Shown here in pieces: positions 7,825-36,740 of a stretch of DNA of 42,773 bases (positions within the stretch are counted from its first letter, which is position 1; every line of letters starts with the position of its first letter). Source of the stretch: a virus; IMG/VR virus record IMGVR_UViG_3300008262_000358, positions 1 through 42,773 of that record; one strand, written 5' to 3'. The notes under the pieces are model-generated. The model saw only the letters and a program-made list of their open reading frames with translations, ran no database searches and was not told where the DNA came from. The translations under genes were made by a program, and so were the position numbers.

Positions 7825-7825
7825 T

Positions 7826-8245: not shown

Positions 8246-8255
8246 AATTTAAGTT

Positions 8256-9680: not shown

Positions 9681-10336
9681 AATATTTAAGTTTTAGTTTA
9701 TGGGGAGACAAACCCATTTATAATGTTGGAGCGATTAAAAATGCCGAATTATGGAAAGAAATATATCCAAATTGGCAAATGGTTGTTTACTATGATAATT
9801 CAGTTCCTTCGAAAACCATTGATAAATTGATCGAATTGAATGTCATGGTAATCAACATGACAAATGAAAACTTATATGGTCCTTTTTGGAGATTTTTAGC
9901 CGAGAGTATATCAGATGCTGAATATTCTATATTTAGAGATACAGATTCTAGACTTACACTTAGAGAAAAACTGGCAGTTGATGAATGGATTACCTCAGGT
10001 AAATCTTTACATGTCATGAGGGATCATCCTGCTCACAGAATTCCTTACGGTGCTCACTCTTTAGGAATATTAGCGGGCATGTGGGGTATCAAATCTAATG
10101 TTATACCTCTGAAAAAAATGATAGAAAATTCTGAGTTGTCAAGAACTACAAAGTATGGAACTGATCAATCTTTCTTGAGAACTATTTTTTCTATTTTTGA
10201 AAATGATAAAGTGACACATGATGAATTTTTTGATAAAACCCCTTTTCCAATTAAAAGAGACCCTGGAAGGTTTGTCGGTGAAAGAATGGATGAACATGAC
10301 AAACCGGTAGGGGAAGATTATAAGATTTTTTTATGA
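9677..10336 (+). CDS. GT-A-type glycosyltransferase-like protein
   Basis: 219 residues. The sequence MKYLSFSLWGDKPIYNVGAI, then WQMVVYYDNSVP, the acidic motif FRDTDSRL (about 94-101) and MRDHPAHRIP resemble small nucleotide-diphospho-sugar transferases with a DxD metal site (DTD here). It overlaps the upstream stop by four bases and the downstream start by four, so three glycosyltransferase-like genes are coupled. The sugar and acceptor cannot be told from sequence. Cytoplasmic; no membrane segment. Confidence 0.65.
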   Translation: MKYLSFSLWGDKPIYNVGAIKNAELWKEIYPNWQMVVYYDNSVPSKTIDKLIELNVMVINMTNENLYGPFWRFLAESISDAEYSIFRDTDSRLTLREKLAVDEWITSGKSLHVMRDHPAHRIPYGAHSLGILAGMWGIKSNVIPLKKMIENSELSRTTKYGTDQSFLRTIFSIFENDKVTHDEFFDKTPFPIKRDPGRFVGERMDEHDKPVGEDYKIFL

Positions 10337-11049
10337 AGATAGATTATGCAATTGTAAGTTCCAACGACGAACCAATGTATTTAGATTTTTGGGAAATAGT
10401 TCGTGATTTATGGATAAAAAAAATAGGAATAAAACCTATTTTAGTTAAAATAGATAATGTAGACGAAGTAATTGACGGTGGGGATTTTATCATTCACAAA
10501 ATAAAAAAGGTAGAAGGAGTAAATACAGGATTTCAATCTCAGATTGCTAGATTGTATGTAACTAAATCTTATCAAGATAAGGTATGTTTAATATCTGATA
10601 TAGATATGTTACCTTTATCCAAAAATTATTTCGTCGACAATATAAAGAGTTATGAAGATGAATCAATGATCATTTTCAGTTCGGACGCATATGGTGGTAT
10701 TGGTCGATATCCAATGTGTTATAATGCAGCTAAAGGGTCCCTATTCGATGAAATATTAAATTTAGATAGTTCCTTTGAAAGTTTTTGTTCCAGACTTTTA
10801 TCATTGAACCTGTCTTGGGATACAGATGAAATATTCTTAGGTAGAATGATAGATTCTTATAAGAATAATAATAAGATAATAAAATTAAAAAGAGGATGGG
10901 TTAATGGTATTGCAAATCACAGGATTGATAGAGCATCATGGAATTATTCGATTTCCGAATTACAACAAAATAACTATATTGATTGTCACTCTCTCAGACC
11001 TCTATCACAATATAAAATAGTTATTGACAATTTATTAAGGTTATTATGA
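10333..11049 (+). CDS. GT-A-type glycosyltransferase-like protein
   Basis: 238 residues. The start MKIDYAIVSSNDEPMYLDFW and the metal-site stretch VCLISDIDMLPLSK (about 84-97, DxD as DID) point to a GT-A nucleotide-sugar transferase. A second acidic stretch, LSWDTDEIFLGRM, fits the acceptor/catalytic region. It overlaps neighbours on both sides by four bases. No membrane segment. Donor and acceptor unknown; it probably acts in the same glycan pathway as adjacent genes. Confidence 0.65.
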   Translation: MKIDYAIVSSNDEPMYLDFWEIVRDLWIKKIGIKPILVKIDNVDEVIDGGDFIIHKIKKVEGVNTGFQSQIARLYVTKSYQDKVCLISDIDMLPLSKNYFVDNIKSYEDESMIIFSSDAYGGIGRYPMCYNAAKGSLFDEILNLDSSFESFCSRLLSLNLSWDTDEIFLGRMIDSYKNNNKIIKLKRGWVNGIANHRIDRASWNYSISELQQNNYIDCHSLRPLSQYKIVIDNLLRLL

Positions 11050-11705
11050 AAATATTAGTTTCCATATTATCCGCAAATTTTGAACCATTCATTACGTTAG
11101 AACAAGGAATAAGAGAAACATGGTTGATGAATGATCACCCCGAAATTGAAAAAATTTTTTATTATGGTAATCATGATAAAATAGAATTGATTGGTGATAA
11201 ACTTTTTGTAGACTCCCCCGAGGGATTGATGAATGTTGGACACAAAACATTGAAAATGTTTGACTTTGTTTCGAAAAATTTCAGTTTTGATTATTTGTAT
11301 AGAACAAACTCTTCGTCTTATATCGATTTAAATAGATTATATGAATTTATTATAAATAAACCAAGAACTCAATTTTACTCAGCGGTTATAGGAAATTACA
11401 ATGAGATCAAATTCGGTTCAGGTTCAGGATATTTTTTATCTAAAGATTTAGTGGATTTAGTTCTCAAAAATAAAATGATGTGGAATCACGAATTCATTGA
11501 TGATGTTTCTTTAGGAAAATTTTTAACAGATAAAGACGTTCAAATTTTTCAGGCGGAAAGATTCGATGTGACACCAAGTAATATTCACAAAATCGATATC
11601 GATTACTATCATTACAGAGTGAAACAAGAAGATGATAGAAATAAAGATGTCCAAATGATGAAATTAATCCATAAACTCAAAGAAAATATAAAAGTTACAA
11701 TTTAA
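11046..11705 (+). CDS. GT31-like (galactosyltransferase-fold) protein with altered DxD
   Basis: 219 residues. The layout is reminiscent of the beta-1,3-galactosyltransferase (GT31) fold: IRETWL (about 22-27, the RxTW motif), then YLYRTNSSSYIDLNRL where a DDD metal motif is usual, GSGSGYFLSKDLVDLVL, and IDDVSLGKFL matching the EDV-G motif. The metal-binding DxD is replaced by TNSSS, so catalysis may be metal-independent or lost. It overlaps the preceding stop by four bases. The family call is by pattern only and is moderately sure. Confidence 0.55.
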   Translation: MKILVSILSANFEPFITLEQGIRETWLMNDHPEIEKIFYYGNHDKIELIGDKLFVDSPEGLMNVGHKTLKMFDFVSKNFSFDYLYRTNSSSYIDLNRLYEFIINKPRTQFYSAVIGNYNEIKFGSGSGYFLSKDLVDLVLKNKMMWNHEFIDDVSLGKFLTDKDVQIFQAERFDVTPSNIHKIDIDYYHYRVKQEDDRNKDVQMMKLIHKLKENIKVTI

Positions 11706-11715
11706 AATTAAAAAA

Positions 11716-12288
11716 ATGAACCACGAAGTTTATTCTGACGAAACCATAAAAAATAGAATTTCCGAGTTATTAGAAACACCAAGGATGTACCATATACCAT
11801 TGATTTCCGAGGAACATGGTCACGCCAATACAACTAAAGGATTGTTGGATTTGGTCAAAGAATGTATAAACACAAAAGATATTGTAGTCGAGGTCGGTTG
11901 TTTTTCCGGTGTGAGTAGTCGCATTTTTGCATTAGGGTGTCGCGAGTTGCATTGTATTGACCCCTATAGTTGGCCGGCAACATTCCAAGCCGAAAAGATG
12001 TTTGAATCTATGCTTCCTGAATATCCTAACATAAAAAAAATAAAAATGACAAGTGTTGATGGATCAAAATTATATGAAGATTATAGTATTGATTTTATCT
12101 ATATAGATGCCGATCATACATACGAGTCAGTGATACAAGATATTGAAAGTTGGCAGTCTAAAGTAAAAAAAGGAGGGTATTTAGGGGGTCATGATATATA
12201 TATACCTGATGTTAAAAAAGCCGTCGAAGAAAAATTTGGAAATAAATATAAAACATATTCAGATACTAGTTGGGTGGTTAAATTATAA
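11716..12288 (+). CDS. Class I SAM-dependent methyltransferase (type 24-like)
   Basis: 190 residues. SAM-binding motif I is DIVVEVGCFSGVSSRI (about 55-70), followed by LHCIDPYSW and a motif IV-like FIYIDADHTYESV, then KKGGYLGGHD. This fits the Methyltransf_24 group, often O-methyltransferases of sugars or small molecules. Within the glycan island the likely substrate is a sugar hydroxyl, but that is contextual inference. The start is ATG 11716 after an A-rich leader with no Shine-Dalgarno. Confidence 0.8.
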   Translation: MNHEVYSDETIKNRISELLETPRMYHIPLISEEHGHANTTKGLLDLVKECINTKDIVVEVGCFSGVSSRIFALGCRELHCIDPYSWPATFQAEKMFESMLPEYPNIKKIKMTSVDGSKLYEDYSIDFIYIDADHTYESVIQDIESWQSKVKKGGYLGGHDIYIPDVKKAVEEKFGNKYKTYSDTSWVVKL

Positions 12289-12315
12289 TAAAAGTAAATT
12301 TTTATAAAAAAAAAT

Positions 12316-12921
12316 ATGCAAACAGAATTATGTGAATTATTTAAAAAAAATTTATCAGATAAGTGCCCTCAGGTTGGTCACAGTTATTCACCGGAATATT
12401 ATAATCTTTTAAATGAAAACAAAAATATTTATAAAAATATTTTAGAAATTGGTATTGGATATAAAGAATTAATGATACCATATTGTGGTTCAGACTACAA
12501 TATTGGAGCTAGTTTAAAAGCTTGGTCTGAATTCTTCCCAAATGCGAATATATTTGGTTTGGATATTAGAAAAGATGTTTTGTTTAATGATAAAAACATT
12601 TGTTGTTTTTATACCGATCAATCTAATGAATCTGAATTAGAAAAAACTATTTCAGAGATAAAAAAATATACTGAATCTCAAAATTTGACATTTGATTTAA
12701 TCTTAGATGACGGTAGTCATATATATGATCACATGGTATTAAGTTTTAAGGTTTTATCAAAATATGTTAGAATTAATGGTTTATATATTATTGAGGATAT
12801 ACAAAATCAATATTTACAATCTTTTATTGATTTAAAAATTGATGGGTTCGAAACAGTAAAAATACACAAAGGGTCCAAAAGTATAGATGATAATTTTGTC
12901 GCATATAAACGAATTTTTTAA
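12316..12921 (+). CDS. Class I SAM-dependent methyltransferase (macrocin/MycE-type-like)
   Basis: 201 residues. SAM motif I is NILEIGIGYKE, followed by NIGASLKAWSEFFPNANIFG and LDI, and FDLILDDGSHIYDHM. The pairing of a SLKAW-FPNA segment with a DDGSH motif is typical of sugar O-methyltransferases of the MycE/TylF group, which bind a divalent metal through the acidic pair. It follows the other methyltransferase with a 27-base A/T gap. I infer methylation of a deoxysugar or other glycan residue made by this island. Confidence 0.75.
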   Translation: MQTELCELFKKNLSDKCPQVGHSYSPEYYNLLNENKNIYKNILEIGIGYKELMIPYCGSDYNIGASLKAWSEFFPNANIFGLDIRKDVLFNDKNICCFYTDQSNESELEKTISEIKKYTESQNLTFDLILDDGSHIYDHMVLSFKVLSKYVRINGLYIIEDIQNQYLQSFIDLKIDGFETVKIHKGSKSIDDNFVAYKRIF

Positions 12922-12927
12922 ATAAAA

Positions 12928-13482
12928 ATGTTTTTAAATATAATAACACCTTGCTGCAGACCTGAAAACTTACATAAAATTTCAGAAAGTATTAACATAC
13001 CAAAAGATAATTATAGGTGGATTGTTGTCTTTGATATGGATCAGTTGCCGGATAAAAACTTAATACCTGATAATTGTGAAGTTTATTTGCATAGGAATCC
13101 TCACAGTATTGCAGGTCATTCACAAAGAAATTTCGCATTAGAGTTTATTCGAAACGGATACATATATTCAAATGATGATGATACTATTTTACACAAAGAT
13201 CTTTGGGAAAATATAAAAGATTTAGATAGTGATTTCATTACATTTTTTCAAGAAGACAAGTTTGGAACTATTAGATTAGTTGGTGAGGTTGAGATTAATA
13301 AAATTGACAGTCATAATTTCATCGTTAAATATGACATCATCGGTGAAACAAAATTTATAATAAATCAATATGCTGCGGATGGATACTTCGCAATAGAATG
13401 TTATAACAAGGCAAAAACTAAAACTAAAATAGATAAAGTTCTATCTACGTATAACTCTCTCAATAATTCTCGACACAGATAA
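12928..13482 (+). CDS. GT-A glycosyltransferase-like protein
   Basis: 184 residues. The N-terminus LNIITPCCRPENLHKISESI is a typical GT-A nucleotide-binding start; HSQRNFALEFIRNGYIYS followed by NDDDTI gives the DxD metal site (about 76-82 for DDD). The protein is short for a complete transferase with an acceptor domain, resembling single-domain GT2/GT43-type enzymes. It begins six bases after the methyltransferase stop. Function inferred as sugar transfer; specificity unknown. Confidence 0.65.
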   Translation: MFLNIITPCCRPENLHKISESINIPKDNYRWIVVFDMDQLPDKNLIPDNCEVYLHRNPHSIAGHSQRNFALEFIRNGYIYSNDDDTILHKDLWENIKDLDSDFITFFQEDKFGTIRLVGEVEINKIDSHNFIVKYDIIGETKFIINQYAADGYFAIECYNKAKTKTKIDKVLSTYNSLNNSRHR

Positions 13483-13494
13483 AAACTAAAATTA

Positions 13495-14241
13495 ATGGAA
13501 AAAAAATCAAGAACAAGAAAAAAACCGATTCAACCAAATCAAAATGTGGATGAAACACCTAAACCCAAACTAACTAAAAAAGAACTTATTTCTCAGATAA
13601 TTAAGAAAAAAACAAAAGAAAAATTTTTATCGGAAAGTCAAAGAATCTATTACAACATTTTAACTAAAAATCAAATTACAATTTGTTCCGGTCCGGCAGG
13701 GGTTGGTAAAAGTTATATTTCCATGAAAGCTGCGGTAGATATGTTATCTGACCCTACAACTCCATACGAAAAAATTGTGATTGTAAGACCAGCAGTAGAA
13801 GCTGAAGAAAAATTGGGATCATTACCAGGTAATGTAGAAGAAAAATTAGACCCTTATATTTTCCCGTCCTATTATCTATTAAATAAAATCATTGGAAAAG
13901 AGGCTCGTGAAAAGTTAAAAGACATTGATGTTGTTGAAGTTTTTGCATTAGCGTATATGAGAGGTATGAATATTGATAACACAATCTTGATTTTTGAAGA
14001 GGCTCAAAACGCAACACCATCACAAATGAAGTTACTATTAACAAGAATAGGGTTTAACAGTAAATTTTTTATATCAGGAGATTTAGAACAATTTGATAGA
14101 CATAAAGATAAAACACAAACCGGTTTATGGGACGCATTGAAAAGACATCAAAATACAGATGATGTGGGTATTTTTCAATTTAAAGATGAAGATATTGTTA
14201 GAAATCCTTTAATAACCAAAATATTAAAAAATTACGAATAA
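13495..14241 (+). CDS. phoH: PhoH-like ATPase
   Basis: 248 residues. Walker A is GPAGVGKS (66-73) and Walker B is ILIFEEAQN (164-172), within the PhoH core (IVIVRPAVEAEEKLGSLPG; ISGDLEQFD). A basic N-terminal extension (about 45 residues, MEKKSRTRKK...) precedes the domain. PhoH family proteins are P-loop NTPases related to superfamily 1 helicases and are common in marine and freshwater phages; their role in infection is not settled. The gene sits among glycan genes with 13 bases before it and two after it. Confidence 0.93.
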   Translation: MEKKSRTRKKPIQPNQNVDETPKPKLTKKELISQIIKKKTKEKFLSESQRIYYNILTKNQITICSGPAGVGKSYISMKAAVDMLSDPTTPYEKIVIVRPAVEAEEKLGSLPGNVEEKLDPYIFPSYYLLNKIIGKEAREKLKDIDVVEVFALAYMRGMNIDNTILIFEEAQNATPSQMKLLLTRIGFNSKFFISGDLEQFDRHKDKTQTGLWDALKRHQNTDDVGIFQFKDEDIVRNPLITKILKNYE

Positions 14242-14243
14242 TA

Positions 14244-14891
14244 ATGAGAATTGCAATTGATGTTAATGGTGTTTTAAGAGACACTATTGGTAAGATCACT
14301 CAGCTATATCAAAAACATTTGATTGATGACTATCAAAATGAATTTGATAATGAAACCTATCAATTAGACTCATCCGGAAATACAGAATTAGAAGTTGTAA
14401 AACCATTTAAATATCAAATATTAAGTGAAGTTACGTCACTTAATTTAAGAGATCATTTTACGTTTCAATCTGACGAAGAATTATATAATTTCATGTATAG
14501 AGAATTTCCTATGCAAATATTTGGTCATGCCGGATCTACAGAAGGTTCTTCAATGAACGATTTGAATGATTTTTATTTAGGGTTTAGAGATAATAACGAC
14601 ATATTAATAGTGTCAGATGAGATAGGTAAATCAAAACCCTCAACATTATTTTTCCTCTCCAAATTTGGTTGCCTTATCGAAAAAGTAAAATTTTTCAGTA
14701 ATTCAACTAAAAATTCTTTATGGGATGAATTAGACATTTTACTTACGGCCAATCCTGACTTATTATTGAATTATCCAAAAAATAAAACTATTATTAAATT
14801 TGAAACTTCATATAATCAAGAAATTAAATCTGAACTTACAATTTCATCTATTAAGGAGTTAAAAAATATAATTAAAAATTTAAATTTATGA
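14244..14891 (+). CDS. HAD-like hydrolase-family protein
   Basis: 215 residues. The N-terminus RIAIDVNGVLRDTI resembles HAD motif I of deoxynucleotidase-like proteins (hhhDxDGVL), but the second acid is Asn (DVN). A possible motif II/III region is DILIVSDEIGKSKPSTLFFL. Loss of the second Asp would impair phosphatase chemistry, so the protein may be a divergent enzyme or a non-catalytic relative. Two bases separate it from phoH; it overlaps the next gene by four. Nucleotide metabolism is possible but unproven. Confidence 0.55.
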   Translation: MRIAIDVNGVLRDTIGKITQLYQKHLIDDYQNEFDNETYQLDSSGNTELEVVKPFKYQILSEVTSLNLRDHFTFQSDEELYNFMYREFPMQIFGHAGSTEGSSMNDLNDFYLGFRDNNDILIVSDEIGKSKPSTLFFLSKFGCLIEKVKFFSNSTKNSLWDELDILLTANPDLLLNYPKNKTIIKFETSYNQEIKSELTISSIKELKNIIKNLNL

Positions 14892-15163
14892 GCATGTTAG
14901 AAATTATGAATGAGCACTACTTTATCGATATGGATGAAATTGATAAGTATGTAATGATTGACAACCCGGTGAGCGGTATTTCGGTTGAACATCATATTAA
15001 TATTGTAAGATATGAAACAATAAAACTTATGTTAGAAGTTGTGATGGATGGAGGAGAAGAAATTGATGAATCTTTAGGTTCTAAAAGTGCAAAACACTTA
15101 TCAATACCATTTAGATTATCTTTCAATACTTTATTAAATAAAAAAATAATTAAATCATATTAA
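14888..15163 (+). CDS. Small conserved-looking phage protein, unknown
   Basis: 91 residues, mixed alpha-type composition, acidic in the middle (DGGEEIDESLGSKSAKHLS). The start overlaps the previous stop by four bases, indicating coupling to the HAD-like gene. No catalytic motif, Cys cluster or membrane segment. I recognise no named family; its position suggests only that it is expressed with the phoH/HAD group. Confidence 0.6.
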   Translation: MSMLEIMNEHYFIDMDEIDKYVMIDNPVSGISVEHHINIVRYETIKLMLEVVMDGGEEIDESLGSKSAKHLSIPFRLSFNTLLNKKIIKSY

Positions 15164-15167
15164 ATTT

Positions 15168-16232
15168 ATGGATCCAAAATTTGAAAAATTAGAAAAGTCG
15201 ATTCAGAACTTAAAAGAAAAAAAAGCACGTATTTATTTGTTTGTGCAAGACACAAAAGGTAATCCTAAAGCCGGAGTTAGGTACATTTATCAAATTGGAA
15301 TGGCATTATTGAAAAATGGATATAATCCAATTATTTTACACGAAAAGCCTGATTATACAGGTGTATCAGAATGGTTGGATGAAGAATTTATGACTTTACC
15401 TCATAAAGCAATTGAGGGTCAAAATTTGGAAATATCACCTGAAGATTTGATTTTAATTCCGGAGATCTATGGATATGTTATGGAACAAATTAAAGATTTA
15501 CCTTGTGGAAAAATTGTTACTTGTCAGGCATATGATCATATGTTAGAAACATTACAACCCGGTTTCGGATGGGTTAATTATGGATTTTTAAAATGTATTA
15601 CAACCTCAGAATTTCAGAAAGAATATATATCGACAGTTATGAGGAATATCTCTATTGATGTTTTAACACCCATGATTTCAGACGTGTTCGAAAAATCAAA
15701 ATACCCAGCAAAACCTTTTGTTGCGGTTCATTCAAGAGATCCAAGAAAGACAATTAACTTTATTAAATCGTTTTATTTGAAATTCCCCCAGTATAGATGG
15801 GTAACCTTTAGAGATATGAGAGGTTTAAGTGAAACTGATTTTGCAAATTATCTTAAAGATTGTTTTTTAAGTATTTGGATTGATGAAACAAGTGGATATG
15901 GAACATTTCCATTAGAATCTATGAAATGTGGTGTTCCGGTTATTGGAAAAATACCATCTTTATATCCACATTGGTTAACATCTGAAAATGGAGTTTGGGT
16001 AAATGAAGATATTAAAATTCCTGATTTCACTGCCGATTTTTTACAAAATTGGTTAGAGGATAATATTAATCAGGACTTATATGAAAATATGGATAAAACT
16101 ATCCAACAAATGCCGAATAAAGAAATTTTTGAATCTAAAGTGATTGAGTTATTCTCAGATTATTTGACCACAAGAGAAAAATCATTTACAGAACAATTAA
16201 ACAAATTAAAATATGACGAAAATGGAAAATAA
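15168..16232 (+). CDS. GT-B (GT4-like) glycosyltransferase
   Basis: 354 residues. The N-terminal half includes RIYLFVQDTKGNPKAGVRYI and an acceptor-side Rossmann fold; the C-terminal half has the GT4 donor-binding signature (GYGTFPLESMKCGVPVIG, about 243-260, with the E-x7-E-like acidic pair region) and ends in a helical tail, so unlike the 6114 gene it looks complete. It transfers a sugar from a nucleotide sugar; specificity unknown. Follows its neighbour by four bases and overlaps the next gene. Confidence 0.75.
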   Translation: MDPKFEKLEKSIQNLKEKKARIYLFVQDTKGNPKAGVRYIYQIGMALLKNGYNPIILHEKPDYTGVSEWLDEEFMTLPHKAIEGQNLEISPEDLILIPEIYGYVMEQIKDLPCGKIVTCQAYDHMLETLQPGFGWVNYGFLKCITTSEFQKEYISTVMRNISIDVLTPMISDVFEKSKYPAKPFVAVHSRDPRKTINFIKSFYLKFPQYRWVTFRDMRGLSETDFANYLKDCFLSIWIDETSGYGTFPLESMKCGVPVIGKIPSLYPHWLTSENGVWVNEDIKIPDFTADFLQNWLEDNINQDLYENMDKTIQQMPNKEIFESKVIELFSDYLTTREKSFTEQLNKLKYDENGK

Positions 16233-17025
16233 AATTGATGTATCAGTAATATTACCGATTAAAACAGCCACCGCAAAAGATTTCGACGAGTTTTTCAAAA
16301 AAGCGATTGATTCTTTAATTAATCAAAAAGTTCAAGTTAATGAATTAGTGATTGTCCACACTGATGAGGAGTTACTAGAAAAAAAATTAACTGAATATGA
16401 TTTTGGGGTTCTCAATGTTAAAAAGTATAAGTGGACACAAGATGCTAGTTTCGCCAAACAAGTAAATTATGGGATTGAAAAATCAGAATCTAATTGGGTT
16501 TCGTTTTTTGAGTTTGATGACGAGTATTCAAATATTTGGTTCGACAATGCTCAAAAATACATGAATGTATATAAAGATGTGAAAGCATTTTTACCAATTG
16601 TAATCGATGTGGACGATAAAGGACTTTTTGCTGGTTTCACAAATGAAGCGACATTCGCATCAAACTTTAGTCAGGAAGTTGGATATTTAACTAACGATAC
16701 ATTACATAGTTTTCAAAATTTCCAAACTGCCGGTATGGTTATACATAAAGAAGTAATTAAAGATTTTGGCGCATTTAAAACAAATTTCAAATTAACATTT
16801 ATATACGAATTTTTATTAAGATTAACTTTCAACTCTGTCAAAATTATGACTATCCCTAGATTAGGATATAAACACGTCAATCTCAGAGAAGGATCTATTT
16901 TTTGGAACTATAAAAATGGAGACGATGTCTTAACTGAAAATGAAGTTAAGTTTTGGATAGAATCCGCAAAGAAAGAGTATTTCTTCAAAGACGAGAGACA
17001 GATTAAATACACACCTCAAGTTTAA
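16213..17025 (+). CDS. Family 2-like glycosyltransferase
   Basis: 270 residues from ATG 16213; ATG 16222 (MENKIDVSVILPI) is an equally good start and reduces overlap with the upstream gene. IDVSVILPIKTATAKDF is the GT2 nucleotide-binding start, and WVSFFEFDDEYSN (about 96-108) carries the acidic metal site. The C-terminal part includes GYKHVNLREGSIFW. Last glycosyltransferase of the island; its stop shares a base with the sigma factor start (TAATG), so late-transcription and glycan genes are coupled here. Confidence 0.7.
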   Translation: MTKMENKIDVSVILPIKTATAKDFDEFFKKAIDSLINQKVQVNELVIVHTDEELLEKKLTEYDFGVLNVKKYKWTQDASFAKQVNYGIEKSESNWVSFFEFDDEYSNIWFDNAQKYMNVYKDVKAFLPIVIDVDDKGLFAGFTNEATFASNFSQEVGYLTNDTLHSFQNFQTAGMVIHKEVIKDFGAFKTNFKLTFIYEFLLRLTFNSVKIMTIPRLGYKHVNLREGSIFWNYKNGDDVLTENEVKFWIESAKKEYFFKDERQIKYTPQV

Positions 17026-27237: not shown

Positions 27238-28776
27238 TTATCTCAACTCTTGTAAATCAAACGTTCTAACACCATCTACGGTAATTTTACCGTAAAATCT
27301 GTTGTTCACCATTTTCTTCGCATATCTGGTCATAATACCCTTGATAGGAGTAAAGTTGAACGGATTGTACATTGTAGGTGTTAATTGAAGAGGTACATAA
27401 GGAGCGTAAATGTAACCAGTATCAAGAAGTGATGTACCTTTATGTCCTAACAACACTGTGTTTGCTGGGAAGTAAGGATCACGATATACTTGGTATCTAC
27501 CTGCTAAAGTACCAACTCTTTCAATACCCATGTTGTACTGATCTTGTTCAGGAGAAGCGTTTGAAACGTGGAAATACTCTAAATCATCAAAGATTGCACT
27601 GATTTCAGAAGAAACCACGATCCAGTTAGCACCACCTCTAAGAGTTGATTTGTGGATCTGTGCAGATACTTGGTTGATTGCGGTGATAAGAGTTTGGTTC
27701 CAATCTTTCTGAGTGTAAGAAGTTGTAGAACCGAGTCTTTTCCAACCGTTGTAATCCCATCTGATAGACCAAGCGGCACCTTTTCTAAGATCTCTTAAGA
27801 TTTCTCTATCGATCTCAGCTGCAACTTGCTCAGAAAGTAATGCTGTCAATTCAGCTTCAGCGTCGATGTTGTGGAAAGCCGCAACGTCTTGAGCCAATTC
27901 AGGAGACCATTGTGCTCTTAATTTTCTTTCAGTTACAGAAACTGTTACAGATTCTAAATCAAAAGAAACTTCACCAATTTTGTCTTCGAATTCAAGCTCT
28001 TCGTATCTTCTGAATACCGCTACGAAAGATGTTGCAGATGCTGCTGAAGTTACAGTAGCTCCACTATATCCGTCTAAAGAACCGGATCCGCAGCTGATAC
28101 ATACAGGACACTGAAGATCAACTTCGAGAATGATACAACCATCAACAGAACAAACACTGTCGTATTTTCCACCACTAGTGTTAGGCCATGATGTTGAATC
28201 AGTATTGTAGTTAGGATTAACAATACCTCTACCATATTGTTGTGTAACAACTCTGAAAGGTAATGCACTTGCTGAAGTATCAACACAACCTGCTACGATA
28301 TCTAAACCATCACCTGCTACGATATGAAGATCTGAAAGGAAAGTTTCTGTATCCATTTCAGAACCATCAGGCCCGATTAATTTACCATATCCGGTATCGT
28401 TGAATCCGCACATTTTAACTATCATTTTTCTTTGTTCTCCACTGATTGAATTGTTAGGAACTAAAGAACCATTTGACCAACTTACAACAGTTGTTGTTGC
28501 TGTGATAGCCGTCCATTGACCTTTAGAATAATCAAACAAACCAGCAGGATTCAAAGTAGGTTCAGAACCTTCATAGAATAAATCGTAAAGATTCTTTTTG
28601 TAACCACCTGTAGCATCTGTATAACCAGCATCAGTTGATCCAGGATAATTTCCAGGAGAACCGATTGGTGCTCTGTGTTCACCACTTCTGTTATCAGTTC
28701 CACCACTGTATCCTTGAATTTTAGGAACGAAGTAGAACAATTTACCGATTGGTAAGTTCATAGCTTGTACAGACAC
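27238..28776 (-). CDS. 23: Major capsid protein, T4 gp23-like (main part)
   Basis: Residues 284-330 of this frame (RKLRAQWSPELAQD, then NIDAEAEL and EIDREILRDL) match the central gp23 region, and the C-terminus (YRDPYFPANTVLLGHKG, YAPYVPLQLTP) matches the gp23 end. This protein forms the capsid hexamers. The GTG at 28776 is not the true start: coding sequence with capsid character (GHLKENVAQLYENQASFL) continues in the same frame up to 28935, where a TAG-containing frameshift separates it from the true N-terminus at 28931-29041. Restored length would be about 600 residues, longer than T4 gp23 (521), partly from an N-terminal insertion with several Gly/Ser/Thr-rich loops. Terminator and HNH gene follow. 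Confidence 0.93.
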   Translation of the reverse strand: MSVQAMNLPIGKLFYFVPKIQGYSGGTDNRSGEHRAPIGSPGNYPGSTDAGYTDATGGYKKNLYDLFYEGSEPTLNPAGLFDYSKGQWTAITATTTVVSWSNGSLVPNNSISGEQRKMIVKMCGFNDTGYGKLIGPDGSEMDTETFLSDLHIVAGDGLDIVAGCVDTSASALPFRVVTQQYGRGIVNPNYNTDSTSWPNTSGGKYDSVCSVDGCIILEVDLQCPVCISCGSGSLDGYSGATVTSAASATSFVAVFRRYEELEFEDKIGEVSFDLESVTVSVTERKLRAQWSPELAQDVAAFHNIDAEAELTALLSEQVAAEIDREILRDLRKGAAWSIRWDYNGWKRLGSTTSYTQKDWNQTLITAINQVSAQIHKSTLRGGANWIVVSSEISAIFDDLEYFHVSNASPEQDQYNMGIERVGTLAGRYQVYRDPYFPANTVLLGHKGTSLLDTGYIYAPYVPLQLTPTMYNPFNFTPIKGIMTRYAKKMVNNRFYGKITVDGVRTFDLQELR

Positions 28777-28930
28777 GATGTCGTTAGCTAAAAGTTTAGA
28801 GAATACTCTTCTTACGATAGGGAATACAACTGTTTCAAAAGAACCAGAAGAATCTGTCGCAGAAGCTTCGTTGATTAAGAATGATGCTTGGTTTTCATAT
28901 AACTGAGCAACGTTCTCTTTAAGGTGACCT

Positions 28931-29041
28931 CTAAGATAAGAATCCTAGTTTGTCCCATTTGCTAATTGTGTCTTCTTTAATAACTTTAAGGTGTTTTAAC
29001 CCAATGTTACCAACAAGACCACTTTCTAATAATGCACCCAT
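28931..29041 (-). pseudogene. 23: Frameshifted N-terminus of the major capsid protein
   Basis: ATG 29041 opens a 36-residue frame (MGALLESGLVGNIGLKHLKV ... KWDKLGFLS) ending in TAG at 28931-28933. It has the look of a gp23 N-terminus, and its end runs straight into the main capsid frame if one base is skipped: TTA then CTT AGA GGT CAC. An A-rich leader precedes the ATG. Either one extra base is present, a sequencing/assembly error exists, or a +1 programmed shift occurs at UCU-UAG. As written, the two parts are in different frames. Confidence 0.8.
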
Positions 29042-29068: not shown

Positions 29069-30484
29069 TTAGTTTTTGATGTTCATTTTGACCATCAAAT
29101 CTTTCATTCTCATAAATTGAGGATTTTCATAAGTTTTTGACTCAATTAAACTTGCAGCTGAACCGGAAGAAGGAGTTCTTTCAATTTGTTCTTGAATAGA
29201 TTCCTTACTTGGTTTTTTGGAAGCTTGAGAAGAAAGTTCGTCTTTTATTGATTTGTAAAGAGTTTTTGACTCTTTTAAGGTTTCAACAGCGTCAAATCTT
29301 CTTAAGATGTTGATTTTTTCTTGTTTGGTTGTGGAATGTTCTGTGAATAATCTTGTGGCGTAAGCTAAGTTTGAATTGAACACCGCAACTTCATTTAATT
29401 TACCTCTGAATAAATTTAGAGCTTTTCTATACTCTTCATTTTTTTCTCTTAATAAATTTAATTCGTTTTCGTTAGATTCAACTCTAAGATGTCTTGGAGC
29501 GGCTTTAGGTTTTGGTAAACCTTTTTTACCAAAATATCTTCCTGAACCTAAAGTTCTTGAAGCTTCTTTTGTTTCGGCTTTTTTAACAACTTTGTTTTTA
29601 CCTAATTTATCACCAGCATTTTCACCTTGACCATAACTAAATTTCTTAGCACTACCAGTACCAACAGATTTAGGACCTTGTTTCATTTTTTCTTTAAATC
29701 CTCCCGTTGTTTTTTTGTACTGAAATTTAGGTTTTCCCATCCCTTTACCTTTCGCTTTGAAAGCTTCTTCTAAATTATATTCTTCTTCATCTAATTCTTC
29801 ATCAGATTGTTCGTCTAATTCATCATCCATTTCAATTTCATAAACGATTTCATCATCAGACTCTTCATCTAATTCATCATCCATTTCAATTTCATAAACG
29901 ATTTCATCATCAGACTCTTCATCTAATTCTTCATCAGATTGTTCATACATTTCTTCGTCCATTTCGTCTTCGTCAGATTGCTCATCTAACTCTTCATCAT
30001 CGGACATTTCGGAGAACATTTCTTCATCCTCTTCGGATTCACCCATTTGAATTTTATACTCAACATCAGCATCGGTATCTTCTAAATCAATAGTGTTACC
30101 ATCTTTTTTAATGATAATACCATCTTCTTCTCCCATACCTTTAAATACTTTAAGTATTTCTTCATCGGATGCATTTGTAAGATCAATAGGTTCGTCGCTG
30201 AGATCTGTCATGTCATCTACGTTTATGTCAACATCAGTATCATCCACATCCATGTCATCCATATCAGTGTCATCAACATCAGTAACATCTACATCTGTGT
30301 CATCAACATCAACATCGTCAACGTCAGTGTCATCATCTTGTTCCATTAAGGATTCTTTTACCAATTCTCCGATTTCTTCTTTCATTGTAGATTGAAGTAT
30401 TCCTTTTGCGTTTTCAGAAATTACATTTTCCAAATCTTTCATTTGGAGTAATGTTTCTTCTACTAAAGATTTTTTTTCTGCCAT
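29069..30484 (-). CDS. Acidic head scaffold candidate (gp22 position)
   Basis: 471 residues between the prohead protease and the capsid gene, the place of scaffold gene 22 in T4. Residues about 48-245 are extremely acidic (TDVDDVDVDD repeats; DDELDEESDDEIVYEIEM twice), followed by a basic Gly/Lys linker (about 250-340) and a helical C-terminal domain (LAYATRLFTEHSTTKQEKI, about 385-405). Acidic, helical, removable scaffolds are typical of T4-like prohead cores. No sequence homology to gp22 is claimed. Its start is preceded by a TATTTATA box 17 bases upstream. Confidence 0.6.
   Translation of the reverse strand: MAEKKSLVEETLLQMKDLENVISENAKGILQSTMKEEIGELVKESLMEQDDDTDVDDVDVDDTDVDVTDVDDTDMDDMDVDDTDVDINVDDMTDLSDEPIDLTNASDEEILKVFKGMGEEDGIIIKKDGNTIDLEDTDADVEYKIQMGESEEDEEMFSEMSDDEELDEQSDEDEMDEEMYEQSDEELDEESDDEIVYEIEMDDELDEESDDEIVYEIEMDDELDEQSDEELDEEEYNLEEAFKAKGKGMGKPKFQYKKTTGGFKEKMKQGPKSVGTGSAKKFSYGQGENAGDKLGKNKVVKKAETKEASRTLGSGRYFGKKGLPKPKAAPRHLRVESNENELNLLREKNEEYRKALNLFRGKLNEVAVFNSNLAYATRLFTEHSTTKQEKINILRRFDAVETLKESKTLYKSIKDELSSQASKKPSKESIQEQIERTPSSGSAASLIESKTYENPQFMRMKDLMVKMNIKN
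29821..29928. repeat. Tandem 54-bp repeat in the scaffold candidate
   Basis: Two perfect adjacent copies (29821-29874 and 29875-29928) encode the 18-residue unit DDELDEESDDEIVYEIEM on the minus strand. A recent in-frame duplication is likely because the copies are identical at the DNA level. Confidence 0.95.
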
Positions 30485-30863: not shown

Positions 30864-31592
30864 TTATTTTTCAAGAAATGTAGACAATTTTTTCATTAAA
30901 TCAAGCGACTTATCAGTTTGTGAACTATCAAGAGGAGATATTCTACTTTGTTTCATTTTATTTTCTTCCTCCAAATTTTCTTCATATTTATTTCTATCTT
31001 CAGCATTTAAAAATAAATAGGCTCCGGGTGTTGATGGTGAGGATACTAAATCAAAACATATAAGTTCGAAATCATCCTGAACTTCATTTTGGTCTCCTTT
31101 TTTAGCGAGTGACCCTACACCTCTTGATGAAATACCTAACGTTACTCCTTGTCTTAAATAATTTGCTGCCACGTCACCCTTACAAGAAATAATACCTCTT
31201 TCATGAAATCCAGGGGATGTTAATAATTTTAATTTACCCATTAAAATATTACCTTCCCACCATACTTCACTGATCATATGAGATACTCTATCCAAATCAA
31301 TTAAGGAAGATTCAGGGTGATTTAATTCAGAAAGGGCAACTCCTTTTTGAATCATTTTTTTATAATTGTCGGCTTCTCTTTTAAGGATCTTTTCAGGATA
31401 TATTCTTCCATTTCTATTTGGTGTATTGTATTTTTGTAACACTGCGTAGAATTCAAACGGTTTAGAATAATCTAAAAAGTTTTTAGATTCTTTTATTACA
31501 TCTAAATTATATTTGTCGTTTGGTGACACGTATCCCGCATCATATTCAATCAAAATACCTTTACCTATTTCATTTGGGGCTAATATTCTCAT
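30864..31592 (-). CDS. 21: Prohead core protease, T4 gp21-like
   Basis: 242 residues. The phage prohead protease pattern is clear: YNTPNRNGRIYP (55-66), the catalytic His in SELNHPESS (88-96, H92) and the Ser region TLGISSRGVGS (151-161), then ELICFDLVSSPSTPGA. The gp21-type serine protease cleaves scaffold and capsid proteins during head maturation. Located between small unknown genes and the scaffold candidate, in T4 order. TATTTATA lies 14 bases upstream of ATG 31592. Confidence 0.93.
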   Translation of the reverse strand: MRILAPNEIGKGILIEYDAGYVSPNDKYNLDVIKESKNFLDYSKPFEFYAVLQKYNTPNRNGRIYPEKILKREADNYKKMIQKGVALSELNHPESSLIDLDRVSHMISEVWWEGNILMGKLKLLTSPGFHERGIISCKGDVAANYLRQGVTLGISSRGVGSLAKKGDQNEVQDDFELICFDLVSSPSTPGAYLFLNAEDRNKYEENLEEENKMKQSRISPLDSSQTDKSLDLMKKLSTFLEK

Positions 31593-31632: not shown

Positions 31633-32082
31633 TCATATTTGATTGTATTCTTTGTCTTTCTTTGTAAGTGAGAATGAATATGTATCGGAATTTGTAAAAT
31701 TATTTTTAATTATTGAATCACATATTTTTTTTATTTCATTTTTAAGTTTCAACGATCTAAAATCTTCCTCCTCTTTTAAATAAAAAAAACATTCAAGATT
31801 TAGAAAAGATTTTTTACCCATTTGTATTCCACTTGATCTTAGATCCAAATCAACTATAAATTTTTCATTAAAAAAATCTTTTTCTATTGTTTCAAATATT
31901 GTATGTTTAATTTCTCTTGAAAGTAAATTGACAGATCTGATTGGGGAGAGGATTTCTTTTTTGGGTTGAGCCCAAGTTTGGATGTTAAGATAGACTGATT
32001 TTAGATTTTTGGAATCTACCGTTCCGTAATTAATTTTGAAGGACTTATGTCCTGTCATTTTTAGGTTTTTACCTTTTTTCAT
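31633..32082 (-). CDS. Hypothetical head-cluster protein
   Basis: 149 residues. Mixed alpha/beta; the stretch NLLSREIKHTIFETI, then FIVDLDLRSSGIQMGKKSF and LNLECFFYLK looks like a folded, conserved core. Lies between the portal and protease genes, where T4 has the small core genes 67 and 68, but no homology to them is claimed. A basic N-terminus (MKKGKNLKMTGHKSF) starts at ATG 32082. Function unknown. Confidence 0.65.
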   Translation of the reverse strand: MKKGKNLKMTGHKSFKINYGTVDSKNLKSVYLNIQTWAQPKKEILSPIRSVNLLSREIKHTIFETIEKDFFNEKFIVDLDLRSSGIQMGKKSFLNLECFFYLKEEEDFRSLKLKNEIKKICDSIIKNNFTNSDTYSFSLTKKDKEYNQI

Positions 32083-32179
32083 TAATTTTCATATTGAATT
32101 AGTTTATTTAATTAAAAAATATGAAAATAATATTCGTTAGTCAAAAACTTTTCATAATATTAAGATATTTCTATATTAT

Positions 32180-32371
32180 ATGATAATAATTAATCTTGAA
32201 AAAAACATTACTTTAGATAAAGGGCTCAAAATCTTAAAACAAAAAGTTATTAAGTCCAAACAAAATGAAATATTGAGAGGCAAAAAAGAATACACAAAAA
32301 AATCAGTAGTATTGAGAACTCAAAAAAAGAAAGCAATTTATAAACAAAAATACTTAAACAATCAATTATAA
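32180..32371 (+). CDS. rpsU: Ribosomal protein bS21, phage-encoded
   Basis: 63 residues with the whole bS21 pattern: strand MIIINLEKN, helix LDKGLKILKQKVIKS (12-26), then ILRGKKEYTKKSVVLRTQKK (31-50) and KAIYKQKYLNNQ. The RxKKxYxKxSxxxRxxxxKAIYxQK end closely resembles Bacteroidota bS21. bS21 binds the 30S platform near the 16S rRNA 3' end. In Bacteroidota it helps hide the anti-Shine-Dalgarno. Phage-borne bS21 genes are known. It is alone on the plus strand inside the minus-strand head cluster, and its last six bases overlap the end of the convergent gene. No Shine-Dalgarno; a degenerate TATTTCTA box lies six bases upstream. Confidence 0.85.
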   Translation: MIIINLEKNITLDKGLKILKQKVIKSKQNEILRGKKEYTKKSVVLRTQKKKAIYKQKYLNNQL

Positions 32372-33070
32372 GCTTTCACCTAACGTTTTAAGTTTGATTA
32401 AACTTAACGTATCTATATTTTGTGTTTTGATTCTCGTAATTGTCTCCTCAATTCTTTGTTTTGTTTCGTTATCAGATGATTTAGACAAATCTTCTAATTT
32501 TTCAACAACGATTTCACTTATAATTTCGTATCTTTTTTCTAAATCTTCTTTAGTTAGTGAAGTATATTTTTTAATCTGACTAATTTCAGATTCTGATAGT
32601 TGAGATAAATGGTCATTTAAGTTTTTATTTGCAATCTCGACCATTTTTTCTAAAGGGACATTTATTACTTTTTTATCTTCTTTTTTACTTTTAAGGCTTT
32701 CTAAAATTTGTGTTTTGGATTTAATTCTGTCCTCAACAAGAACTGAATCAATATTAAGAACATTATCAATTAATTTGTAATTGTTTTCACAAACAACATC
32801 CCCAACCCATTTTTTTAACATAAAAACAGATTTCTCATCAACTTCTAATCTATTATAAAGATCTACACATTCTTCTAAAAAGTCCTCAGCAAAACGATCA
32901 GTGTAACCTTTATTCTCATTTAATTCATTATAAATGTGAAATGCTTTACTAAAACTTTCATTTTGTAAAACTAATCTTTTGAAGTTAGCAAATTCTTTTT
33001 TGAATGTTTCATTCATATATGAATCACTCAATTTTTTTTCTATTTTTGATTTTAATAAACCGAATTCCAT
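32366..33070 (-). CDS. Helical head-cluster protein, unknown
   Basis: 234 residues from ATG 33070 (MEFGLLKSKIEKKL); a longer frame to 33100 would overlap the portal gene and lacks support. Almost entirely helical and charged, with coiled-coil stretches in the second half. Sits between portal and protease genes, like the T4 core genes 67/68, so an internal head or core role is possible. TATTTATT lies 14 bases upstream. Its 3' end overlaps the bS21 gene by six bases. Confidence 0.65.
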   Translation of the reverse strand: MEFGLLKSKIEKKLSDSYMNETFKKEFANFKRLVLQNESFSKAFHIYNELNENKGYTDRFAEDFLEECVDLYNRLEVDEKSVFMLKKWVGDVVCENNYKLIDNVLNIDSVLVEDRIKSKTQILESLKSKKEDKKVINVPLEKMVEIANKNLNDHLSQLSESEISQIKKYTSLTKEDLEKRYEIISEIVVEKLEDLSKSSDNETKQRIEETITRIKTQNIDTLSLIKLKTLGESL

Positions 33071-33084
33071 AATTTTTATTTTAT

Positions 33085-33092
33085 AATAAATA
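33085..33092 (-). promoter_or_regulatory. TATTTATT late-promoter-like box
   Basis: The minus strand reads A-TATTTATT directly after the portal stop (33093) and 14 bases before ATG 33070. This position supports the shorter start of that gene. Confidence 0.45.
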
Positions 33093-34937
33093 TTACCCAT
33101 TCAGAAGTTTATCTAATTCTTTTTCCATCTCACCCAAAGAATTTTTTGCTTTTGATAAATCAATCAAAAGATCATCACTTAAAAAGTCATCGCTTTCAAG
33201 TAAAATATTCAAATTGTCTGATTTTCCTTCCGGTGTTAATCCTCCACCTTCTTCACCGCCACCTGGAGGTGCTCCGCCAGCTTCAGGTTCTCCACCCATT
33301 GGAGGCATTCCCCCACCTAATCCTCCTGGTTCAGATCCTCCTCCTTCATCACCTCCACTTACTGCGGTTCCTCCACCTGTGGTTCCTGTTGTAGTACCAT
33401 AAAGCTTATCGATATTATCGAAAATACCTGTCTTCGTAATAACGTTAGGGGTATTTTCAAGTTCTTTTGCAACCGCCTTTTCAATTCTTTGTTGTTGTAT
33501 ATCAAGTTTAATTTCCTCATCAGAAAATCCAAGAATATTCTTTTTAGCCCAAGATTGAGATACAGGGGCTATTCCATCTATCATTGCAACAGCATCTTTA
33601 TAAAGTAGTATTTTTTCTTTCCAAACTTCAACTTTAAGAAGATCGGCTTGTGTTGATGGATTATTAAGAGTAAGGACAAAGTTTGATAATTCGTCTTCAA
33701 AACCAAGTAAAAATAAATGTATGATGGCGATTTTGTTTAATTCGGCTAACATACTTTTTTGTATTCTGTTAATTGTTCTAGCAAAACGAATATCTTGTAA
33801 GGAAAGATTTTTACCGTCACCAACTACTTCTTCAAACCCTAAAAACGCTTTAGGAACTCTGAGAGCGGTTAATAATTTCTTTTGAATATATTCAATATCG
33901 GCAATTTCAGATAGGTTTTGAGCCCCGGCTAATGTCTCAATTGGCATAGTCTGGGTGGTATCTCTAACCGGGATAAAATAATCTTGGTCTACCGCCATTT
34001 GATTAAATCTCAAATCAACATTTCCGGTTTTATTATCAATAACCTGATCTCTTTTAAATTTATTTGCAACACGTTGTACATACGCTTCAACATCCTTATC
34101 ATCCATATTACCAACAAACACCTTGAAAACTCTTCTTTCCGGAGCTCTTGAGGTTCTGTATATCAACATAGCGTCTTCTGATAATAAAAGTTGTTTCCAA
34201 ATTCTTCTTGCTTTTTCTAACATAGAAGTTCCGTAAGGGAGTTTTCTGTCATCACCAAGTAATCTGAAGTGAGCAATTTCCCAAGTATTGAACTCCATAT
34301 TTCTATTCTTCCAACTAAATCTTAACGCTTTTTGATCAGTATCTTTATCGTCAAGGGTTGATTTACCCTTCATACTTCTTTCAAGTCTTTCAATTTCAAT
34401 ATTTGGTAATTGTAAACAACCCACAACACCTTTTTCCGGATCTAACTTAAGATAAACAAAGTTATCTCCGTATTTACACGTATTTCTTGTCCACATAACA
34501 AGATTCGTATTAATATCGAGGGCATTATTAAATAAATCGGCTAATACTGATTTAATCCTTCTTGACTCAGAATAAATTTTCAATACAAATCCATTTTCAC
34601 TTGTTGTTGTTGATTCTTCCGCATATATGTCTAAAGCCGCTGATATTTCCGGAGTATATTCCATACTTTCGTAGTCGTAATACGACGCCAATCTTGTCGG
34701 TTCAAAATAAACCCCTTGTGTATAAAGATTATTTTCAATTTTTGTCCATTGGTTGGCAAGATATACTGTTTGTTGTGCTTGTAATTTTTGTTTTTCGTAT
34801 TCTTGCTTATTTGTTGTTTTTAATAATTCTTTTTTGTCATATCTGAACGTAGGGTAATCCTGACTCAGTAATGAATTTGGACCAAAGGCTGTGGATAACC
34901 TCTGCCAAACCGTCATATTTTTATTATTTTGCTCCAT
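33093..34937 (-). CDS. 20: Portal protein, T4 gp20-like
   Basis: 614 residues. Typical gp20 features: YTPEISAALDIYAEES, the stretch LSEDAMLIYRTSRAPERRVF and VGNM, and LRVPKAFLGFEEVVGDG. The portal forms the 12-subunit ring at the head vertex through which DNA enters. The C-terminus (about 520-575) carries a Gly/Pro-rich low-complexity insertion (GGGSEPGGLGGGMPPMGG) before a final acidic helix. Follows the terminase gene as in T4, with TATTTATT 28 bases upstream. Gene number assigned by homology and synteny. Confidence 0.94.
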   Translation of the reverse strand: MEQNNKNMTVWQRLSTAFGPNSLLSQDYPTFRYDKKELLKTTNKQEYEKQKLQAQQTVYLANQWTKIENNLYTQGVYFEPTRLASYYDYESMEYTPEISAALDIYAEESTTTSENGFVLKIYSESRRIKSVLADLFNNALDINTNLVMWTRNTCKYGDNFVYLKLDPEKGVVGCLQLPNIEIERLERSMKGKSTLDDKDTDQKALRFSWKNRNMEFNTWEIAHFRLLGDDRKLPYGTSMLEKARRIWKQLLLSEDAMLIYRTSRAPERRVFKVFVGNMDDKDVEAYVQRVANKFKRDQVIDNKTGNVDLRFNQMAVDQDYFIPVRDTTQTMPIETLAGAQNLSEIADIEYIQKKLLTALRVPKAFLGFEEVVGDGKNLSLQDIRFARTINRIQKSMLAELNKIAIIHLFLLGFEDELSNFVLTLNNPSTQADLLKVEVWKEKILLYKDAVAMIDGIAPVSQSWAKKNILGFSDEEIKLDIQQQRIEKAVAKELENTPNVITKTGIFDNIDKLYGTTTGTTGGGTAVSGGDEGGGSEPGGLGGGMPPMGGEPEAGGAPPGGGEEGGGLTPEGKSDNLNILLESDDFLSDDLLIDLSKAKNSLGEMEKELDKLLNG

Positions 34938-34973: not shown

Positions 34974-36740
34974 CTATCTTCTACCACCAAATAACCACCC
35001 ATAATTTTCATAATCTCTTCTTGATGGTTCAGTTGATCTTTGATTTCCCATAAAAGGACCTGAAGGTATTACAGGATTAAATGCAACTTGTTTATTAATG
35101 TTTTCATTTGAATTGACAGTCCAAGATTCAAGCATCGCTTTAGTTTGTTCACCAACTTTTTTAAGTTGTGAAAATGAATTTTCACCAACATAAATAGCCA
35201 TTGATATTCCCATAATTAAATCATCGTGATGTCCTTTTTGGTGATCTGGTCTTCCGTTTATATAGATAAACGTATTCATTTCATTAAACAATCTTTGACT
35301 ATAAATTTTGAATCCGTGTCTTATTGCTTCTTCAAAAGATGCGATAATTTGAACCCTTTTATTATTGAAATTTATTCCGGGTGTTTTATCTAATAATTTT
35401 ACATTATACTTCCAAGGGTTGTTCGCCTCAATATTATCTATATAAAGGTTTTTATATCCCAATTCTAGTAGTTTTCTTGCGGTGGCGACACCCATTCCCC
35501 CTGTAATATCAATTACGATAAACGCATTATACATCATTCCCCACTTATATGCAATCTCCGCCGCAACATCAGGAGGAACCTTTCCAAGATATTCTAAAAC
35601 CTGTTCTCTTTCATCAAAATCAATAATAATGATAGATGTAGAGTCTTCAGAATCCCCTCTTGATACGTCCACACCCATTATGTATTTGTGATTCTCTACC
35701 GGTTCTTTCCACATCCAAAGAGATCCCCCCATCATTTTATTTTCGGGATCTTTGATGAAATTTTTATGAATTCCTTGCATTAATTTAGAGTCAAATACAT
35801 TGTCCCCGGAACCTAAAAAGTTACATTCCAATTCCTGAGAAACTTTACGCTTATCAAATTTTAATTTTTTAACCATCCCCTCAAACCATGTTGAGGTTGG
35901 TTTATATCCGTCAGCAATTTTTTGTTTTATTTCCTCAAAATCTCTTTCAGTGAAACTTTTCTTAGAATAATCAATAACATCAAGATTTTTATAATCTTCT
36001 CTATTAAGAAAATAATGTATTAAATCCTCAACTTTAACAAGTTTAAGATCTTTTGTATATCTTGGATCTTTAAACCAATACATTTCAGATATTTTAAACT
36101 CATTCATATTTCTGAGTGCCTGATCGTATATCTCGTAATAAATGGGGTCAAATCCGTTAGGCGTTGAAATAACAATAACTTTACCACCGGTAGAAAGAGA
36201 GGCCATACAAGCCGCCCAGAAATCACTGTCAGCCTCAATATATGCTGCCTCATCAAATATCAATATTGTTGGAGTATAACCGCGAAGAGCATCTTTTGAA
36301 GTTGCAACCGCTTTAACCTCACAACCATTATTTAATTTGTAATGTCTTTGTGAATCCTTTTCTTTAGAGAAATCAATCCCAACCCATTTAGGCCATTGTT
36401 CGGTAAATCCACGAACTTTATTCGCCATTTCAATGGCGGTATCCAATTTATTTGCGATTATTAGAATCTTTTCAGGTCTTTTCTTTTGGGCAAATGCAAT
36501 TTTTTTTGATGCCCAAGCGGCGGTTACTGTGGATACTCCCGCCTGACGGTATTTTAATGCGATATTCTCATTGTAGTTCTCATAATCCTCAAGTAAACTT
36601 TCTTGATCCGGAAATAGTTCTAAAGGAACATATTGAGAAACTGTGTTATCGTAGGTTTGTAAATATGTTTTAAGTGCATATGGTGTATCTTTCATACACT
36701 TTGCGTATTCAACATATAATTGTTCTTTTGTTAATGCCAT
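34974..36740 (-). CDS. 17: Terminase large subunit, T4 gp17-like
   Basis: 588 residues. The ATPase domain has a Walker A-type loop YRQAGVSTVT (64-73), in which the usual GK is GV and the basic residue is the upstream Arg, as in several phage terminases. Walker B is TILIFDEAAYIE (158-169). The RNase H-like nuclease domain has MGVDVSRGDSEDS (355-367), VIDITGGMG (409-417) and HHDDLIMG (504-511) as the three acidic sites. It cuts and packages DNA into proheads. Flanked upstream by a hairpin terminator and a TATTTATA box. Confidence 0.96.
   Translation of the reverse strand: MALTKEQLYVEYAKCMKDTPYALKTYLQTYDNTVSQYVPLELFPDQESLLEDYENYNENIALKYRQAGVSTVTAAWASKKIAFAQKKRPEKILIIANKLDTAIEMANKVRGFTEQWPKWVGIDFSKEKDSQRHYKLNNGCEVKAVATSKDALRGYTPTILIFDEAAYIEADSDFWAACMASLSTGGKVIVISTPNGFDPIYYEIYDQALRNMNEFKISEMYWFKDPRYTKDLKLVKVEDLIHYFLNREDYKNLDVIDYSKKSFTERDFEEIKQKIADGYKPTSTWFEGMVKKLKFDKRKVSQELECNFLGSGDNVFDSKLMQGIHKNFIKDPENKMMGGSLWMWKEPVENHKYIMGVDVSRGDSEDSTSIIIIDFDEREQVLEYLGKVPPDVAAEIAYKWGMMYNAFIVIDITGGMGVATARKLLELGYKNLYIDNIEANNPWKYNVKLLDKTPGINFNNKRVQIIASFEEAIRHGFKIYSQRLFNEMNTFIYINGRPDHQKGHHDDLIMGISMAIYVGENSFSQLKKVGEQTKAMLESWTVNSNENINKQVAFNPVIPSGPFMGNQRSTEPSRRDYENYGWLFGGRR

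What the first reader, a model, noticed from the sequence alone, without database searches (positions are those of the whole stretch)
32180..32371. Phage-encoded ribosomal protein bS21 placed inside the head gene cluster
A full-length bS21 homologue of Bacteroidota type lies alone on the plus strand between head genes on the other strand. bS21 in Bacteroidota helps sequester the 16S anti-Shine-Dalgarno, and most start sites here lack Shine-Dalgarno. A phage bS21 could replace the host protein on 30S subunits and shift translation to phage mRNAs.
Basis: partly seen in the sequence, partly recalled or inferred. Interest (0 to 1): 0.75.

Follow-up and report, generated by a model that had tools for sequence, protein, structure and literature searches.

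The report
Phage copy of ribosomal protein bS21
A virus of Bacteroidota bacteria carries its own version of a small ribosomal protein next to its shell-building genes; this arrangement was published in 2022, and the new detail here is that the virus gene lacks the control signal that the host uses to regulate the same protein.

Summary
ORF 32180-32371 (+) encodes a 63-aa bS21 whose best solved match is Flavobacterium johnsoniae bS21, aligned without gaps and including Tyr54. It lies between T4-type head genes on the other strand. It is not new: Chen et al. 2022 (PMC9723584) described the same gene, place, strand, host group and hypothesis. Of 46 terminase-sampled IMG/VR loci covering the slot, 42 carry bS21 there, always on the opposite strand; the gene is under purifying selection. 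I found no promoter or leader analysis in that paper. Here, all 80 Flavobacteriales rpsU leaders pair with the 16S tail at below -13 kcal/mol (median -18.7), the published autoregulatory signal; none of 76 phage bS21 leaders does (median -1.1). The phage gene has a late-promoter-like TATTTnTA motif ending about 4 nt from its ATG, shared with head-gene neighbours. Best reading: phage bS21 is made late, outside host autoregulation, enters 30S subunits and keeps the anti-Shine-Dalgarno covered, sustaining Shine-Dalgarno-less translation. Selective translation of phage mRNAs is untested; masking alone cannot give it, since host and phage mRNAs both lack Shine-Dalgarno sequences. The neighbouring 149-aa gene persists in four relatives without bS21.

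The parts
32180..32371 (+). phage bS21 gene, 63 aa
   Evidence: Pfam PF01165, PDB 7jil_z, two-helix model
32166..32173 (+). TATTTCTA, late-promoter-like motif of bS21, 6 nt before the ATG
   Evidence: motif shared with S77, scaffold-position and terminase genes across loci; promoter role inferred
32115..32144 (-). TTGAC-N18-TATTTTT, host-type promoter-like element of the divergent 149-aa gene
   Evidence: single match in the window; conserved in relatives; promoter role inferred
31633..32082 (-). 149-aa divergent neighbour, unknown function, possibly bS21_CN of Chen et al.
   Evidence: present in 46 of 46 spanning loci; model pLDDT 91.5; no Pfam or PDB relative
32366..33100 (-). 244-aa neighbour, unknown function, overlaps the end of bS21 by 6 nt
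30864..31592 (-). S77 prohead protease (gp21 type)
   Evidence: PF03420 E=5.5e-22, phrog_207
33093..34937 (-). portal protein (gp20 type)
   Evidence: PF07230 E=5.6e-78
34974..36740 (-). large terminase subunit
   Evidence: PF03237, phrog_2
27238..28776 (-). major capsid protein (gp23 type); ORF starts late because of a frameshift upstream
   Evidence: PF07068 E=5.2e-64

Best explanation
A large T4-type phage of Bacteroidota (probably Flavobacteriales) encodes its own bS21. SHOWN: it is a bS21 with the aromatic residue that stacks on A1534 of the 16S tail; it sits in a conserved head-gene slot; its leader lacks the extended SD that marks host rpsU; it has a late-promoter-like motif shared with several head genes. 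INFERRED: it is made late from its own promoter as an almost leaderless mRNA, takes the bS21 site on 30S subunits as host bS21 is lost or limiting, keeps the 16S tail covered, and so maintains the SD-less initiation that phage mRNAs need. Lacking the extended SD, its synthesis is not tied to bS21-free ribosomes, and filling 30S subunits should turn down host rpsU. Any preference for phage over host mRNAs would have to come from the phage-specific middle of the protein (V23, I24, K27, Q28, K41), not from covering the anti-SD.
For: Aromatic residue 54 in all 76 distinct phage proteins (69 Y, 4 H, 3 F). Host rpsU leaders: 80 of 80 below -13 kcal/mol; phage bS21 leaders: 0 of 76. TATTTATA within one mismatch: S77 28/28, scaffold-position gene 34/34, terminase 74%, bS21 72% (shuffled 29%), divergent 149-aa gene 8%. 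Late expression of phage bS21 in lake metatranscriptomes (PMC9723584). Ribosomes lacking bS21 or its C-terminus initiate less well on SD-less mRNAs (PMC9976891). A phage bS21 is incorporated into E. coli ribosomes (PMC6375957).
Against: No expression, ribosome or infection data for this phage. The capsid gene lacks the motif, and bS21 has a variant of it (usually G or C at base 6), so the promoter call is tentative. Four relatives do without bS21. Host SD-less mRNAs would be served equally.
Confidence: 0.55

Rival explanations
1. Specialised ribosomes: 30S subunits with phage bS21 actively prefer phage late mRNAs over host mRNAs (hypothesis of Chen et al. and of the first reader).
For: Phage-specific residues in the N-terminal helix and hinge, where mRNA passes (PMC9723584); co-location with late genes.
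Against: No feature separating phage from host mRNAs was found; both are SD-less (the host sample is biased). No functional data.
Confidence: 0.22
2. Inhibitor: phage bS21 displaces the host protein and yields poorly active ribosomes, slowing host translation.
For: Ribosomes with pelagiphage bS21 had about 5% activity in E. coli (PMC6375957).
Against: That test was across phyla; here the gene is linked to late genes, when phage needs translation; Tyr54 and the host-like core are kept.
Confidence: 0.1
3. Virion or prohead-core component: the protein is packaged or used in head assembly.
For: The slot matches the T4 gp67/gp68 prohead-core position; packaging was suggested by Chen et al..
Against: Opposite strand with its own promoter-like motif, ribosome-contact residue kept; four relatives keep the head genes without it.
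Confidence: 0.07

Closest known systems
bS21-encoding Bacteroidetes myophages of Chen et al. 2022 (PMC9723584)
   Same: bS21 on the opposite strand within terminase, portal, protease and capsid genes; aromatic residue 54; Bacteroidota type; PhoH gene; same divergence from host bS21 around residues 21-28.
   Different: Nothing essential.
Host rpsU (bS21) of Flavobacterium johnsoniae and relatives (PMC9976891)
   Same: Same protein family, same length, Tyr54.
   Different: About 30-33% identical to the phage protein; host gene has an extended SD and autoregulation, phage gene has neither.
Pelagiphage HTVC008M bS21 (PMC6375957)
   Same: Phage-encoded bS21; shown to enter E. coli ribosomes.
   Different: Alphaproteobacterial host type; separate acquisition.

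Membership tests
Ribosomal protein bS21 (PF01165) | S21 profile match over the full domain | tested here: met
   E=6e-6 over residues 4-56, 0.7 bits under the gathering score; eight relatives score above it; F. johnsoniae bS21 at 1.9e-26 with a profile that includes 4 host rows
Ribosomal protein bS21 (PF01165) | two-helix bS21 fold | tested here: met
   two helices at pLDDT 90; all nine fold hits are bS21, with weak E-values
Ribosomal protein bS21 (PF01165) | incorporation into 30S subunits | not testable with these tools
   needs a wet experiment
bS21-encoding Bacteroidetes phages of Chen et al. | bS21 on the strand opposite to terminase, portal, protease and capsid genes, between two conserved hypothetical genes | tested here: met
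bS21-encoding Bacteroidetes phages of Chen et al. | aromatic residue at position 54 | tested here: met
   Tyr54
bS21-encoding Bacteroidetes phages of Chen et al. | terminase within about 70% similarity of the published ones | not tested
   their sequences were not in the phage collection searched
Bacteroidota rpsU autoregulation | extended SD below -13 kcal/mol upstream of the bS21 gene | tested here: not met
   -1.1 kcal/mol in the window; 0 of 76 phage leaders, 80 of 80 host leaders

The most novel reading that the evidence does not exclude
The phage bS21 overrides the host's rpsU feedback loop: made late from an SD-free, nearly leaderless mRNA, it fills 30S subunits whatever the bS21 level, closes the anti-SD, switches off host rpsU (which depends on an open anti-SD) and so secures replacement of host bS21.
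Probability: 0.3. Interest if true: 0.6.

Novelty: new member of a known kind. Interest (0 to 1): 0.35.

Why it matters
It adds one more case to a published phage group. The leader contrast makes an open question testable in a cultivable model: whether phage bS21 escapes and shuts the F. johnsoniae rpsU feedback loop, and whether a phage can set ribosome composition late in infection.

Tried and rejected
1) TGTCAAA upstream of bS21 first looked like its -35 box; read in the other direction it is the TTGACA of the divergent 149-aa gene, so only TATTTnTA is assigned to bS21. 2) L110-L120 seemed to lack bS21; a diverged copy is there. 3) The 149-aa gene as counterpart of T4 gp68: position and size fit, but there is no sequence match, nor to two Flavobacterium phage immuto genes, nor a solved fold; one uncharacterised phage protein shares its fold. 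4) Tight coupling of bS21 with the 149-aa gene: weakened by four loci that have it without bS21. 5) A host-versus-phage leader signature for mRNA selection: inconclusive, the host sample is biased to rpsU neighbours. 6) The motif count over the whole window is not significant (12 vs 7.5); its placement is: 8 of the 12 lie within 30 nt upstream of same-strand starts, shuffled mean 0.7, maximum 5 in 2000. 7) dN/dS for L110/L115 is spoiled by an indel and ignored.

Full report
OBSERVATION. The ORF at 32180-32371 (+) encodes MIIINLEKNITLDKGLKILKQKVIKSKQNEILRGKKEYTKKSVVLRTQKKKAIYKQKYLNNQL. Pfam S21 matches residues 4-56 at E=6e-6, 0.7 bits under the curated cut-off. The best solved chain is F. johnsoniae bS21 (7jil_z), aligned without gaps over 57 residues, Tyr54 on Tyr54. 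A profile built from the window protein, 33 phage relatives and 4 host bS21 sequences reaches that chain at E=1.9e-26; the host rows in the profile help this number. AlphaFold2 gives two helices with pLDDT 90, and its nine PDB hits are all bS21, with weak E-values because the angle between two helices is free.

SURROUNDINGS. On the minus strand lie gp23-type capsid (27238-28776), a gene in the scaffold position (29069-30484), a 69-aa gene, S77 protease (30864-31592) and a 149-aa gene (31633-32082); then comes bS21 on the plus strand, followed on the minus strand by a 244-aa gene (32366-33100), portal (33093-34937) and terminase (34974-36740). The order follows T4 genes 17, 20, 67, 68, 21, 22, 23, with bS21 between the two genes at the gp67/gp68 place. 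The same order was seen in nearly all of about 100 loci found through bS21 or through the 149-aa gene; loci that first seemed to lack bS21 have a diverged copy. To avoid sampling on bS21, loci were also sampled through terminase: 46 span portal to protease, 42 have bS21, all 42 in this slot and on the opposite strand; 4 lack it but keep the 149-aa gene. Between close relatives dN/dS is about 0.02-0.16 where dS can be estimated. Phage bS21 proteins form one branch apart from Flavobacteriales bS21 (support 82/89, few columns).

ALREADY PUBLISHED. Chen et al. 2022 (PMC9723584) reported 47 Bacteroidetes phage genomes with bS21 on the reverse strand within the terminase, portal, protease and capsid region, an aromatic residue 54 in all, late expression in lake metatranscriptomes, and the hypothesis that phage bS21 substitutes in ribosomes and favours phage transcripts. 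The window is another member by gene content and order. Their terminase sequences could not be compared directly. PhoH, which they found in all 22 larger genomes, is also here (13495-14241).

WHAT IS ADDED HERE. (1) Leaders. In F. johnsoniae, bS21 synthesis is autoregulated: ribosomes without bS21 have a free anti-SD and translate rpsU through an exceptionally strong SD, below -13 kcal/mol (PMC9976891). With the same kind of measure (RNAduplex against AUCACCUCCUUUC; the tail sequence is from general knowledge and fits the host SD found), 80 of 80 Flavobacteriales rpsU leaders are below -13 (median -18.7; AACGAGAGGAGGTGTCTATATT-ATG is the common form), and 0 of 76 distinct phage bS21 leaders are (median -1.1, strongest -8.4). 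The phage gene therefore lacks the signal of the host circuit. (2) Promoter. TATTTATA with at most one mismatch lies within 35 nt of the start in 28/28 S77, 34/34 scaffold-position, 74% of terminase and 72% of bS21 upstream regions (shuffled 29% for bS21), but in 8% for the divergent 149-aa gene, which has TTGACA-N18-TATTTTT instead. In bS21 the sixth base is usually G or C and the motif usually ends 4 nt before the ATG, close to the terminase spacing, so the mRNA may be nearly leaderless. The major capsid gene does not show the motif, so it is not a mark of every late gene. I found no promoter or leader analysis in Chen et al..

MECHANISM. Shown: a bS21 with the anti-SD-stacking residue, conserved in place and sequence, without the autoregulatory SD and with a late-type promoter-like motif. 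Inferred: late synthesis, entry into 30S subunits, covering of the 16S tail, maintenance of SD-less initiation. Published ribosomes lacking bS21 or its C-terminus initiate less well on SD-less mRNAs (PMC9976891), so a phage that shuts down its host has a reason to bring its own supply. A distant phage bS21 enters E. coli ribosomes but leaves about 5% activity (PMC6375957), so inhibition is a live rival. Preferential translation of phage mRNAs needs some feature that separates phage from host mRNA; SD cannot be it, since 52 window starts have median pairing -0.5 and host Flavobacteriales are SD-less apart from rpsU (PMC9976891). The phage-specific residues V23, I24, K27, Q28 and K41 are the likeliest place to look.

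THE NEIGHBOUR. The 149-aa protein has a confident model (pLDDT 91.5), no convincing Pfam or PHROG relative and no PDB relative, and one uncharacterised phage protein of the same fold (TM 0.83). It may be the 'bS21_CN' of Chen et al., which they thought linked to bS21; its survival in four bS21-less loci and its prohead-core position suggest a head role instead (inference).

VERDICT. Real, ordinary within its published group, useful as a test bed. Interest 0.35.

Noticed in passing
window 28776-29040 (-): The capsid ORF is cut: relatives L003 and L009 read MGALLESG... straight through, while the window has a stop near 28930 and a frame change (GFLS*RSP against GFLDGLRGHLK). Probably an assembly or sequencing error.
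   Followed up: partly
L201, L258, L261, L275: Four relatives sampled through terminase lack bS21 in the slot but keep the 149-aa and 244-aa type genes, so bS21 is dispensable or moved elsewhere in these phages.
   Followed up: partly
window, upstream of 3559, 25777, 26093, 27136, 30484, 31592, 36740, 40879: TATTTATA lies within 30 nt upstream of eight same-strand starts (shuffled mean 0.7), a probable phage promoter motif.
   Followed up: partly
L275:7857-10280: A 784-aa Ser/Thr/Pro-rich ORF is inserted between portal and the 244-aa type gene in one relative.
   Followed up: no
window 6114-17025 (+): Run of sugar-modifying genes (glycosyltransferases, a galactosyltransferase domain, two methyltransferases) with dUTPase and PhoH between them.
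   Followed up: no
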